Positions 54,201-60,200 of a stretch of DNA of 64,000 bases are shown here, piece after piece. The notes under the pieces were generated by a model that had not been told where the DNA came from, searched no databases, and saw only the letters and a program-made list of their open reading frames with translations. Each line of letters begins with the position of its first letter. Within the stretch, counting starts at the first letter, position 1. Source of the DNA: Chamaelirium japonicum (lineage: Eukaryota > Streptophyta > Magnoliopsida > Liliales > Melanthiaceae); assembly GCA_947650365.1 (NCBI GenBank), contig OX393552.1:50858543-50922542 (forward strand), in the 5' to 3' direction. Both the position numbers and the translations under genes were made by a program.

Positions 54201-57200
54201 TGTTGTTACGTCCTTGATATGGACTGTTGTCATGTCCTACTTGGGAGACCTTGGGAGTATGACAACAGTACCATCCACAATAGAAGGGACAATACATATG
54301 TCTTTATGAAAAACGACGAGTAAATCATTCTGTATTCCCAACAAGATATACCAAAATCCCTACAGGCATTTGCGCACTGGCAAAATAACCTATACAAGCG
54401 CATCGAAAATAGGATTAAGAGGGAATCAGAAGCTGAGTCTTCCCTAAGTACGAGGTTGGGTAGGTTGTCCGAGGTTGTGAGCGACCCCGTTTTTGGTCAT
54501 TGGGCATACCATGGTCCCGATATCAGTTATCTGTTTGCAAACAACACAATGTAACGGAGATTTGATCGAGCTCGAGGTCTCTCCCCTCAATGGATTATCA
54601 AAACCCTAGAGCAAACTCTCTTTTCTTTCATTCATTTAGATTATATTGTGATAAAATGACTGCAAATAAGGTTCTCCGAAAACCCTAATGGGTATTGCGC
54701 TAAGAAAATAACTAATAGGCCCATTATATGTTGAGCTTACATAAAACCAAAAATTAGGTTATTCGTTAATCCGAAAACAATTAAATAAAAGGCTAAAATA
54801 CAAAGCGATCAATAAAAGGGCTTGGTAGGGCTGGCCCAATATCTAACAAGTGTCTCCAACTCTCCAAGACATAGCCCAAGTGTTTGGGATGTCCTCCTTC
54901 GCAAGTACACACGCGTCACATACGGTCAAACCGGGTTGGTGCCCCACCAGTTTCGGGATCGATTCCTATTGAAATCAATCCGAAACGGATTGGTTTCGGC
55001 TGAAACTCAATACCCTGGAAAAAACCCTTTAGAGTAACCGACTGGAGAGCAATCGCATGAGAGTTGTGAACATGGATCAACCCCTTCTCTCTGTCTCCTC
55101 TCTACTGTTCATGTTCTTTCTCTTTCACCTCTTTTTCTTCTTTGCTTTCAGCATCTTCTACATGTTTCCGACCAGCAACTTTAGTGAGAACAAAGCCAAG
55201 AGAGAACTTATTGCGTGCCCCACTTTCACTTTTTGTAATACTAAGGAGACCCAAGAGGAAAGTGCAGTACTACCTCTCTTACATTTTTTAGTGCAGGAGT
55301 CCCATCAATAATGGTCTTTCCTTTCCTTTTTAGGATTTTGACATAAGAGTAACAGTGAAACCCCAATCTACATTTTAGCTTATATTGGTCACGCTATTGA
55401 CCTCGAAGATATGTCATGCCCCTTCATATTCAATTAGTTCATAGCTGATCCAAATTAGTCAAACCTTTGAATTTAGCGCCTTTCCTTGTACCAATGGTGC
55501 TAGATCAGAACATAGTATACCCCAACTTATTTTTCGCTTTGATTAACAGAGCCCCTTTGGTCCGGTTTTATATCTCACGAGACCATATTTAGAGGAAGAT
55601 AGGAAAGTGATAGGTAAATAGCAATCAAAAGGATAATAGCAAGAATAGGGGATTCTTTCGTGGGGAGATCCCTTTCATGCACTAATTCATGCGTGAAATT
55701 CATACCTTCACAGGCTTCACCTCATCATATTCAACCAAGGCAATCAAATTAAAGTCAAAGATTTTTCTGAATTGACCACCTCATCTACTATATTCTACCA
55801 ACACTTAAACTTCTTATGGCTACATGGAAACATCGTCGCACCTCCATCTTTATATCTCCCTACTTAATAAAATAAAATGCATAACTAAAGCCTTGTGAGT
55901 TCCTATTTTGAATCGTCACTGCAAGAGTCAGTGAGTCACAAGCGTGGAGATTGTTCGAATCATATGAAAAAATTTCCACTGACCCTTTCACATAGGACTA
56001 CTGACTACATCTTGTTTGTGTACTTGCAGCTTGATGCAGCCTAGCTATGAAGGAATTTGGTTTAGTTGGTCGGCAAAATGCCGCATGGAGACTAGTTGCC
56101 GGCTAGTTCTGATTTTGATAACATAGGGTAGAAGAAATCTTATGATGAAACAAATATATAGATAGATCATAGATCATACTTGTATATAGTTTCTTTTTTT
56201 ATACAAGTATACATATCATACTTTTTGTAGAGGCCAATATTATGTTTATTGTGAAATGAAAGGGAAGGTACTACTCTTACCTTTTCATGTTAAGTGTTCT
56301 AGTATTTCTTATAAATTATATATATATATATATATATATATATATATATATATATAATTTTATGCTCCGCTCATAGCCTTTGGATATAAATATATGAGCA
56401 TGACTTTGTATGCCCATGCATTGAGGGCTTAAATGTATGCTCCGCTCATAGTTGTTGGATATAAATCTAAGGGGTAATGTTGGGCATTTGGAAAACAAAG
56501 CTGGATCAATTACCCAAAAGGCAGCATTAATTATCAAATCTTTTTTCCAAATGCAGCATTAATTGATGCAGCTCTGTTTTCCAAAGACCCAACAGATCCC
56601 CTTAGCTTTATATCCAATGGTTATGAGCGGAGCATACATTTAAGCCCTCAATACATGGACATACAAAGTCACGCTCCTCTTTCTCTCTCTCTCTCTCTCT
56701 CTCTCTCTCTATATATATATATATATATATATATATATATATATATATATATATATATATATATATATATATATATATATATATATATATATATATATAT
56801 ATATAGGAGTGTTATGCTGCGCTGTGCGTTGCGAGATTCTGGTCGTCCGATCGCGCGGATCGGCTGCGAACCGCGCTCAAATCCCCCGCCCGTCAGATCC
56901 AATCGACCGACCGTCTGATCCTATGCACACACAGCCGCCCGGACGTGTTTGATGGGTCGTTCGATTCCCATCCGTTGGATCGATGGGAATCGAACGGACC
57001 AAAATAGTTTTCGCTGTTACTGTAGCGGCTACAGTAACAGCGAAAACCATTTGGGTCCGTTCGATTCCCATCGATCTAACGGATGGGAATCGAACGAACA
57101 TAACAATTGTGCTGTGCGTTGGCTCGATTGGAATCGAACGGTCGAAAATGGTTTTTGCTGTTACTGTAGCCGCTACAGTAACAGCGAAAACTATTTTGGT

Positions 57201-60200
57201 CCGTTCGATTCCCATCGATCCAACGGACGGGAATCGAACGACCCATCAAACACGCCCGGGCGGCTGTGCGTGCACGGGATCAGACGGTCGGTCGATTGGA
57301 TCTGACGGGCGAGGGATTTGAGCGCGGTTTGCAGCCGATTCGCGCGATCGGACGGCCAGAATCTCGCAGCGCATTTTTCAGCCGCGTAGCGCACAACGCA
57401 ACGTAACACTCCTCTCTCTCTCTCTCTCTCTCTCTCTCTCTATATATATATATATATATATATATATATATATATATATATATATATATATATATATATA
57501 TATATATATATATATATATATATATATGGGTCAGGATCGGATGACTCATGAAATTTTGACCCATCATCCTAATCGTTCGATTCGAGTTTCAGAACGTGCT
57601 AATTTTTTGTAGAGGTGTATTTATGGTATGTTGATCAGCCTAAAAAAAAACTACTACATTCTAAAACCTCTAGGGCCATTAAATGTTATAAGTTTTTTTG
57701 ACCGTCAATTTCAACCGTTCATTTGAAGAGCACATTTGATGTATGTAGAGGTTTTAGAATGCGTTGATATTTTGTGAGGATGATCAACATACCATAAATA
57801 GCACCTCTACAAAAAATCAGCACATTCTAAGACTCGAATCCAACGATTAGAATTATGGGTCAAAAAATATGGGTCAACGGATGCGGTGTGCGGTGTGTGC
57901 GGCGTTGCACCGCAGCCGCCTGATGCACCGCTGCGTGCATTGCACGCACCGCAGCGGTGCATTAGGGGCAGCTGCGGTGTGACGCCGCACGCACCGCACG
58001 CCGCATTTATCATTCCTCTCTCTCTCTCTCTCTCTCTATATATATATATATATATATATATATATATATATATATATATACACACGCACATATACACGCA
58101 CACACACATAGTCCGGTTCTCCTAAGGGACATCCCCCATCCTTATCTTGGGGGACAAAAAAATTTGGGGGACCTAGAGGTTTCATAATTTGTTGATTTTT
58201 GGAAAGGATGATCACCTTGTTATAGATATGATCCCCACCAAAAATCAGCAAATTACAGAACCTCTAGGTCCCTCAAATATGCTCTTCAATTTAACGGTTA
58301 AAATAGATGGTCGATAATGAAGAGCACATTTAGAGGAAGTCCTATGACTCCTATCTATAACAAGGTGATCATCCTCACCAAAAATCAGCAAATTATGAAA
58401 TCTCTAGGTCTTTCAAAATTTTTTATCATCCAAGATAAGGATGGGCGACGTCCCTTAGGATATATATATATATATATAGAGAGAGAGAGAGAGGAATGCT
58501 TAGGTGCGGTCCGCTGTCCGCAACCGTCCAATGCACCCGCCGCCGGCGCCGCGTGCATCGGACGGTTGCGGACCACGGGCTGCAGACCGCACCTAAGCAT
58601 CCTTCTCTTTCTCTCTCTCTCTCTCTATATATATATATATATATATATATCAATGTTGTCAGAACCGGACCGGAAGACGAACCGGTTTGTGTACCGGCCC
58701 GGTTCACCGGCCCAACAAACACAGTCAAACCTAGAGAAAGATAGAGAGAGAGAGCATTTGTGCACCAAAAAAAAAACCGGTTCGGTCCGGTTTATACCTA
58801 AAACCGCCCGGCCCGACGGTTCAATACCGGCTCGTTTTCCAACACCGGTTCTCGCCCGGCCCGGACCGGACCGGTTTTCCTACCGGTTCCCGGTCCGGAC
58901 CGGCCGGTCCGGTCCGGTTCTGACAACATTGATATATATATATATATATATATATATATATATATATATATATATATATATATATATATATATATATATA
59001 TATATATATATATAGGAATGCTTAGGTGAGCTATGAGCTACGGAAGGAGAAAATGAGCTACGGATATTTTGACCACCCTAGAAGTTTTGGAATTTCGTGA
59101 AAATCGGTGGGTGTGTTCTCTAGGGTAACATGATCATCCTCACCAATTTTTAAGGAATTCCAAAACTTCTAGGGTCATCAAATGGTAGAAGCAAAATTAA
59201 CGGTTACTACGGACGGTAGATAAAGCTTCTACCATTTGATGACCATAGAAGTTTTGGAATTCATTGAAAATTGGTGAGGATGATCATGTTACCCTAGAGA
59301 ACACACCCACCGATTTTCACGAAATTCCAAAACTTCTAGGGTGGTCAAAATATCCGTAGCTCATTTTCTCCTTCCGTAGCTCATAGCTCACCTAAGCATT
59401 CCTCTCTATATATATATATATATATATATATATATATATATATATATATATAAGGGCGTGTTAGGATGCGATGTGCGGTGTGCGCCCGCAGCCGCATGAT
59501 CGAGGATGAGTGTGATACACCAGTTGGGGCTGGTTACATCGAAAGGTTGTGGTGCGACACCGCACGCCGCTTTTTATCATTCCTCTCTCTGTCTTTCTCT
59601 CTCTCTCTCTCCCTCTATATATATATATATATATATATATATATACACACACACACACAAATTTAACTGCATCTTATGATACACGATACGATACGATACA
59701 CAAACAAAGAAAAATGATACAGGGTACGATACACGATTTGACAACCTTGATCTTCAACTTAGGTGCAATTTAAATGTCGGTTGTTCGTAATCTCACGCCA
59801 CATGGAAACATTACTTACGTTATGACTTGATCTCGTCCGTTAAGATTCACTTCTTTCAATCTCAACCATTGATCAAATAAATATGACTAATCTACAACAT
59901 CAACTCAAAATGTTCTAATTTTGCAATAAGTACTATAGTTCCAACTAAGCTTATAACCCAAAGAAATACAATTGGACAACTTAAAAATAAAGGTAGACAT
60001 AACCTTAAATTAGCCTCAGTCTACAAGCAAGTTCTTTCATTGGTCAATCGTGTCCTCTACATTAACTTTTAGCTCCTCCATCGTATTTTTGCACTGCCAG
60101 ATTTGTGGTTGTTGATAATGCAAGCTGATGTCACATCTTCTCACGATTAATCCATCAAACAGAAATTTTGGCAGCTTTGACTTTGGAGTGAACTATCATG

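What the first reader, a model, noticed from the sequence alone, without database searches (positions are those of the whole stretch)
56315..59660. Cluster of eight foldback elements embedded in TA/CT microsatellites within one intron
Seen directly: eight palindromic elements lie head to tail in 3.3 kb, seven of eight junctions being runs of TA with CT or GA next to the element end. The palindromes belong to at least seven unrelated families. Rice Micron elements are known to insert in (TA)n. Here several families share that habit and appear to have inserted repeatedly into the TA tracts beside earlier insertions, giving a self-propagating landing pad. The mechanism (target preference versus TA tracts carried by the elements) is inference.
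Basis: partly seen in the sequence, partly recalled or inferred. Interest (0 to 1): 0.88.

Follow-up and report, generated by a model that had tools for sequence, protein, structure and literature searches.

The report
Mobile elements stacked in TA repeats
Nine small mobile DNA elements sit side by side in a plant gene, mostly joined by runs of TA; sampled copies elsewhere in the genome show that most of these families land in TA runs that were already there, a habit known in several plants but here caught on one repeated, mostly empty landing site.

Summary
Nine (not eight) short elements, plus a fragment, lie end to end at 56361-59583, with (TA)n in seven of eight junctions, between two coding pieces of an HPAT gene. 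A tenth lies at 13182-13327. E7 is an exception: a hAT-type MITE with 8-bp target duplications, TA-flanked in 6 of 44 copies. A dispersed host repeat, H1 (280+262 sites), carries its own (TA)n. Of 40 copies fetched, 32 are empty pads (17-101 bp), 5 hold one complete guest between both flanks, 1 at least two, 2 are unresolved. So the TA tract precedes insertion, and different families use the same pad. Pads with one guest hold more TA (mean 108 bp, n=5) than empty ones (62 bp), so pads seem to grow with use. The phenomenon is published (SaTar arrays, pineapple Ac-mMITEs, MuTAnT, Micron): this is a new, rich case of a known kind. How the elements are aimed at TA stays open.

The parts
56317..56356 (.). 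(TA)20, left pad of the array
56361..56394 (+). fragment of an E1-type inner arm
   Evidence: 30 of 34 bases match E1's own arm
56395..56678 (.). E1, inverted-repeat element, tip GGAGCGTGACTTTG; 229+217 sites in the genome
56679..56805 (.). (TC)n(TA)n junction
56806..57411 (.). E2, tip GGAGTGTTACGTTGCG; 50+36 sites in the genome
57412..57527 (.). (CT)15(TA)43 junction
57528..57871 (.). E3, tip GGGTCAGGATCGGATGAC; right tip lost; 198+226 sites in the genome
57872..58015 (.). E4, E0-type element, left tip lost, fused to E3; exact joint uncertain by a few bases
   Evidence: fusion inferred from genome copies
58016..58109 (.). (CT)11(TA)22 and a CA-rich stretch
58110..58459 (.). E5, tip AGTCCGGTTCTCC; 48+55 sites in the genome
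58460..58493 (.). (TA)9(GA)7 junction
58494..58606 (.). E6, tip GGAATGCTTAGGTGCGGTC; 1409+1423 sites in the genome
58607..58650 (.). (TC)n(TA)12 junction
58651..58931 (.). E7, hAT-type MITE, tip CAATGTTGTCAG; 187+171 sites in the genome
58932..59014 (.). (AT)41 junction
59015..59402 (.). E8, 388 bp near-perfect palindrome, tip GGAATGCTTAGGTGAGC; 97+98 sites in the genome
59403..59452 (.). (TC)2(TA)23 junction
59453..59583 (.). E9, E0-type element, weak palindrome
59584..59659 (.). (CT)n(TA)15(CA)7, right pad of the array
13092..13181 (.). (TA)45 left of E0
13182..13327 (.). E0, tenth element; the E0-type pattern has 2884+2905 sites in the genome
13328..13545 (.). (TC)19 AC (AT)55 (TG)n right of E0
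13931..14056 (.). (TA)36(TG)26, possible empty paralogue of the E0 site; flank match short (16 of 17 bases left, 10 of 12 right)
47797..48276 (+). reading frame with an HPAT match (PF23452, profile 1-69, E 5.2e-27)
61865..62161 (+). reading frame with an HPAT match (PF23452, profile 97-165, E 5.2e-24)

Best explanation
The cluster is a non-nested array of microsatellite-targeted MITEs. Most are non-autonomous Mutator-type (MULE) elements that integrate into (TA)n tracts already in the genome. (GA)n/(TC)n tails belong to element tips (GAGGAATG and the like), not to the pad. One member, E7, is a hAT-type MITE that joined by an ordinary hAT insertion. Shown here: pre-existing pads, shared use by several families, TA or related flanks in nearly all sampled copies of seven families, E7's 8-bp duplications. 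Inferred: Mutator membership, growth after rather than before insertion, tails by slippage, and how the elements are aimed at TA.
For: Flanks of fetched copies (per family: microsatellite on at least one side / copies scored; on all seen sides): E8 17/17, 17; E6 19/20, 18; E0 20/20, 20; E5 20/20, 16; E2 20/20, 20; E3 18/20, 12; E1 19/19, 19; total 133/136 and 122/136. The same test fired at 0 of 18,512 random positions of the window outside the arrays (one strand). H1 pads: 32 of 40 fetched copies are TA-type tract only, with the right flank intact (largest extra piece 6 bp in 10,975 bp); L216, L234, L235, L236 and L238 hold one complete guest each between the same flanks, L219 at least two. 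If guests fell evenly over pad and seen flank, 7 of 7 in the pad would have P about 7e-6; without the unresolved L222, 6 of 6, about 4e-5. Three more occupied H1 pads, met by other routes, hold E8 (L013), E3 (L046) and two E0-type pieces (L087). No empty pad shows a GA or TC tract, but L013 has (TC)15 beside E8. TA total in the 5 single-guest pads: 64-174 bp, mean 108, against mean 62 in 32 empty pads (one-sided rank test P 0.006). In 17 E8 loci, one search scored 63 of 97 evaluable TA-tract sides as the start of a further inverted-repeat element (null 30 of 880 random starts); three of the 63 and one of the rest turned out to be E8's own ends, leaving 60 of 93. One E3 copy off TA, L147, has an imperfect 9-bp duplication (8 of 9, read by eye).
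Against: Mutator membership rests on tip style, one imperfect 9-bp duplication and published analogues: no autonomous partner was found, but only 150 of 1214 transposase candidates were scored and 202 tip sites compared. E7 breaks the rule. Of E3's 36 sides 9 fail the test, of E5's 40 four, of E6's 26 two; several of these have only 4-10 bp of TA. The gain in TA rests on five pads and could be choice of longer pads. Copies were chosen by me from the listed places (at most 100 per search), often those with both tips in the list, not at random over the genome; the null is one-strand and from this window only.
Confidence: 0.86

Rival explanations
1. TA tracts are carried by the elements, or grow only after insertion at short TA sites, so that no target preference for long tracts is needed.
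For: Some copies have only 4-10 bp of TA on one side in otherwise ordinary DNA (for example L169, L177, L102, L106, L131, L139). Occupied H1 pads hold more TA than empty ones, more than size-biased choice of the empty pads plus 10 bp would give (simulated P 1e-5, n=5). Papers report growth after insertion for maize TAFT elements (told in PMC5907723), and in Medicago about 9 repeats at empty sites against about 15 per side at occupied ones.
Against: 32 of 40 H1 copies carry 17-101 bp of TA-type tract with no element; L234 holds an E0-type guest with only 64 bp of TA in all.
Confidence: 0.3
2. Elements enter TA tracts by homologous recombination of circular or tandem intermediates with microsatellite filler (the model of Valdes Franco et al. 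2018), not by transposase-made target duplication.
For: Extra TA in occupied pads. At G000:C5:59032409-59033337 three E8 copies follow in tandem with spacers TCAGAGAGA and TCTATATGA: 9 bp, or 5 bp of microsatellite if GA/TC belong to the tips.
Against: The 9-bp spacers fit a Mutator-length duplication equally well. Boundaries in ordinary DNA with very short TA and the imperfect 9-bp duplication of L147 fit transposase insertion. E7 has clean 8-bp duplications, but it is of another class.
Confidence: 0.2
3. The array arose by segmental or tandem duplication rather than repeated insertion.
For: E4 and E9 are of one type; E6 and E8 share a tip.
Against: Interiors and lengths differ between neighbours; H1 pads are caught with none, one, or at least two guests of different families.
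Confidence: 0.04
4. Assembly artefact.
For: Long TA runs are hard to assemble; no reads could be examined.
Against: The same kind of array recurs around E8 copies on several contigs, and single-guest pads keep both H1 flanks in register.
Confidence: 0.03

Closest known systems
SaTar elements (guayule, rice, sorghum, citrus), PMC5907723
   Same: Short inverted-repeat elements flanked by (TA)n and other microsatellites, in linear non-nested arrays of different families; fusions by deletion of the linking microsatellite; empty TA sites known in indica against japonica rice.
   Different: Different genome, and families not compared by sequence. Here one repeated host site with many empty copies shows several families using the same pad, and a hAT-type MITE sits in the array. 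Ten-bp duplications and autonomous relatives, reported there, were not established here.
Ac-mMITE-1/-2 of pineapple (mt-MITEs), PMC8449440
   Same: TA-flanked MITEs with GA at the 5' and TC at the 3' end, tails ascribed to slippage, non-nested clusters.
   Different: There two families are treated; here seven, and one search shows further tip types.
MuTAnT / AutoMuTAnT of Medicago, PMC4486113
   Same: Foldback MULE MITEs in TA microsatellites; empty sites shorter than occupied ones.
   Different: No autonomous element found here.
Micron of rice (Akagi 2001; paper not seen, known through the citing papers)
   Same: Targets (TA)n; equated with rSaTar2 in PMC5907723.
   Different: Sequence not compared: not available to me.
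hAT-type MITEs (for E7)
   Same: 8-bp target duplication; tip CAATG; T enriched at duplication position 2 and A at 7 (hAT consensus recalled).
   Different: Found inside a TA-linked array; no transposase searched.

Membership tests
SaTar / microsatellite-targeted MITE | most copies flanked by microsatellite, mainly (TA)n | tested here: met
   133 of 136 scored copies on at least one side, seven families; E7 excluded
SaTar / microsatellite-targeted MITE | linear arrays of different families joined by microsatellite | tested here: met
   window array; 60 of 93 evaluable TA-tract sides in 17 E8 loci begin another element (as corrected)
SaTar / microsatellite-targeted MITE | members do not interrupt one another | tested here: inconclusive
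   of 45 E8 tip pairs in the 100 listed sites, 41 have the intact spacing and 4 are shorter, none longer, but a long interruption would also break the pair; no interruption among the window's nine elements; not surveyed genome-wide. A hAT-type E7 copy (L198) seems to lie in E0/E6-like sequence (by eye)
SaTar / microsatellite-targeted MITE | empty (TA)n sites exist | tested here: met
   32 of 40 fetched H1 copies
Mutator-like (MULE) | 9-10 bp target duplication in copies outside microsatellites | tested here: inconclusive
   one E3 copy, L147, 8 of 9 matching (by eye)
Mutator-like (MULE) | tips shared with an autonomous MULE | tested here: inconclusive
   150 of 1214 transposase candidates scored; 202 typed tip sites, part of the listings, compared by coordinates; no flanking tip pair
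hAT MITE (E7) | 8-bp target duplication | tested here: met
   36 of 38 copies without TA flanks have 7 or 8 of 8 (32 perfect)
hAT MITE (E7) | mobilised by a hAT transposase | not tested
   no search made

The most novel reading that the evidence does not exclude
(TA)n tracts act as common docking sites for more than one transposon class (MULE-type, hAT-type, perhaps Helitron ends), and each docking adds TA, so that a pad becomes a larger target with each guest. The two tandem E8 joints with 9-bp spacers could be footprints of circular or tandem intermediates with microsatellite filler.
Probability: 0.2. Interest if true: 0.7.

Novelty: new member of a known kind. Interest (0 to 1): 0.45.

Why it matters
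How these MITEs are steered to TA repeats is stated as unclear in PMC8227079 (passages). A dispersed repeat with a built-in TA pad, mostly empty and sometimes filled by different families, is a ready-made replicated target-site experiment inside one genome: it allows rates per pad, dependence on pad length, added TA per insertion and duplication length to be measured without related accessions.

Tried and rejected
Autonomous partner: the 150 scored PF10551 hits of 1214 candidates were compared by coordinates with 202 typed tip sites (71 of E2, 69 of E5, 32 of E1, 18 of E3, 12 of E8; counts). That is part of the listed sites, and the E0, E6 and E7 lists were left out. Six sites of E2 and E8 lie within 20 kb of a hit. 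By the listings most of them are tips of complete short elements, and one points the wrong way, so none was taken as an autonomous tip. No DNA around the hits was fetched.

Strand bias of the tails: of eight tails in the window (E0-E9) seven lie on the right; in the E8 loci tails occur on both sides, so I dropped it.

First flank scoring used a wrong tip offset for E2 and too strict a tract rule; one search replaces it (E2 changes from 7 of 20 to 20 of 20 copies, E5 from 19 to 20). The table of E7 dropped three TA-flanked copies because their pure-TA flanks gave identical keys; I restored them (41 + 3 = 44; L195 had only one end and is not counted).

Empty paralogue at 13931-14056: the flank match is too short for weight; the H1 pads replace it.

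Full report
What is there. Nine elements, E1-E9, follow one another between 56395 and 59583, preceded by a 34-bp E1-type fragment. Seven of eight junctions are (TA)n, often with a (TC)n or (GA)n tail at the element tip. The eighth, E3/E4, has no TA; both tips are missing and the parents share GGAT at the joint, which suggests a deletion (inference from genome copies). Arm scores beat 200 shuffles for nine of the ten elements E0-E9, all but E9; against 1372 random windows E1, E2, E3, E5 and E8 are above the best (80), and E0, E4, E6 and E7 are not. 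A tenth element, E0, sits at 13182-13327 in (TA)45/(TC)19/(AT)55/(TG)n. The cluster lies between two reading-frame pieces of a hydroxyproline O-arabinosyltransferase gene.

Families in the genome. The window is G000:C4:50858543-50922542 of a 1,518,659,071-base assembly. Site counts, forward plus reverse, with reversed-pattern controls: E8 97+98 (0/0); E7 187+171 (0/0); E0 type 2884+2905 (5/12); E5 48+55 (0/0); E2 50+36 (0/0); E3 198+226 (0/0); E1 229+217 (0/0); E6 1409+1423 (0/0). A palindrome gives up to two sites per copy, so copies number about half of each sum or more. The patterns allow 2 or 3 mismatches and take in subtypes.

Flanks. For each of seven families I fetched 17-20 copies, chosen from at most 100 listed places per search and often those with both tips listed, so not at random. 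With one rule (a perfect dinucleotide run of at least 10 bp next to the tip: TA, GA or TG/CA kind), 133 of 136 scorable copies pass on at least one side and 122 on all seen sides. One E1 copy had no readable flank and was not scored. Failing sides: E3 9 of 36, E5 4 of 40, E6 2 of 26, the other four families none; several failing sides show a short TATATA. Random positions of the window outside the arrays pass 0 of 18,512 times (one strand).

E7 differs. Its real tip is CAATG; the base before it varies. Of 44 copies with both ends, 36 lie outside TA and have 7 or 8 of 8 matching bases as target duplication (32 perfect), 6 touch TA on at least one side (L044, L051 which is the window copy, L062, L068, L207, L208), and 2 have neither. 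In 32 perfect duplications T leads at position 2 (20) and A at position 7 (23), as hAT duplications do (recalled). Thirty of the places came from matches with T before the tip, which favours TA flanks, and among the 20 later ones I picked three with A there, so 6 of 44 is if anything high.

The pad experiment. A dispersed repeat, H1, has a resident (TA)n between GTTAGGGGACACGCTGAAT and ACAAGTCTTATATTATG. I noticed it because L013, L046 and L087 hold E8, E3 and E0-type guests at the same point. The left-flank pattern has 280+262 sites (control 1/0). I fetched 40 of the 100 listed copies, passing over two listed ones already known to be occupied (those of L013 and L087), so the occupancy is slightly understated. 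Of the 40, 32 are empty, with 17-101 bp (mean 62) between the flanks and an uninterrupted right flank (largest extra piece 6 bp; 10,975 bp seen); a few of these tracts hold TG or CA units. Of the other eight, five hold one complete guest and then the right flank (L216, L234, L235, L236, L238), L219 holds one guest and the start of an E0-type second, L222 holds a longer insert whose far flank was not reached, and L225 runs into unrelated sequence. So (TA)n was there before the guests, different families use the same spot, and no guest was seen in the right flank of the empty copies. The TA total is larger with a guest (64, 104, 114, 86, 174 bp; P 0.006), beyond what choice of longer pads plus 10 bp gives in a simple simulation (P 1e-5); five pads are few, and choice steeper than proportional to length is not excluded. 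Empty pads show no GA/TC tract; E8 in L013 has (TC)15. The tails therefore come with or after the element, as the pineapple paper argues.

Arrays are common near E8. In 17 E8 loci (51,408 bp), one search scored 63 of 97 evaluable TA-tract sides as the start of another inverted-repeat element, with 9 more too near an edge; random starts score so in 30 of 880 cases. Three of the 63 (L020, L023, L030) and one of the other sides (L017) are E8's own ends that my filter missed, leaving 60 of 93. Twenty-two loci around E7 copies outside TA (66,528 bp) have 16 TA-tract sides, 13 evaluable, 4 of them beginning an element. Several tip types recur that the window array lacks (for example GGGGAGGGATACTCTTACTC and GGGCTGGGTTCCTATGACATG). 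Of 45 E8 tip pairs in the listing, 41 have the intact spacing, four are shorter and none longer.

Literature. I read the Results and the first of two parts of the Discussion of PMC5907723, the first of two parts of the Results, section 9 and the Discussion of PMC8449440, the Results and Discussion of PMC4486113, and passages of PMC8227079 and PMC12550479. They describe the same kind of element, array, fusion by deletion, tails and empty sites. PMC5907723 proposes, as speculation, recombination of circular intermediates with microsatellite filler. In the searches I made (listings only, one library) I saw no report of a hAT-type MITE within such an array or of a repeated-pad test, but these searches are far from complete.

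Judgement. What is added is a many-family case, a cross-class member and a replicated pad. The aiming mechanism is open.

Noticed in passing
G000:C5:59032409-59033337 (listings): Three E8 copies in tandem (the third truncated) with 9-bp spacers TCAGAGAGA and TCTATATGA (5 bp if GA/TC are part of the tips); only four places genome-wide join exact CCTAAGCATTCC and GGAATGCTTAGG tips with 31 bp or less.
   Followed up: partly
L017, L031, L058, L079, L102; window near 46379 (+) and 45489-45507 (-): Helitron-like 3' ends (hairpin-like GTGCCGACAGGCAC then CTAGT; look recalled) stand at a TA run in the loci, short in L102; the two in the window are followed by other sequence. The loci were fetched for other elements or found through TA, so no preference is shown.
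   Followed up: partly
window 16.9-31.5 kb: Matching tandem arrays at 16939-19019 and 29393-31543 with gag-type reading frames between them on the minus strand: looks like a large LTR retrotransposon with repeat-rich LTRs.
   Followed up: no
window 43230-43829, minus strand: Copia-type gag piece (PF14223, E 7.3e-20).
   Followed up: no
L198 (G000:C1:57004820-57005279): An E7 copy with a near 7-bp match (6 of 7) seems to lie in E0/E6-like sequence, so the hAT-type member may nest in the others.
   Followed up: no
L222 and L251 (H1 pad, G000:C2:5779211 onward): Long insert with a GAGGGCC tip in an H1 pad whose far end was not reached; could be a larger element.
   Followed up: partly
window 13601-14260: Nested tandem repeats around a second (TA)n(TG)n tract, with a further 62-bp repeat array downstream.
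   Followed up: no
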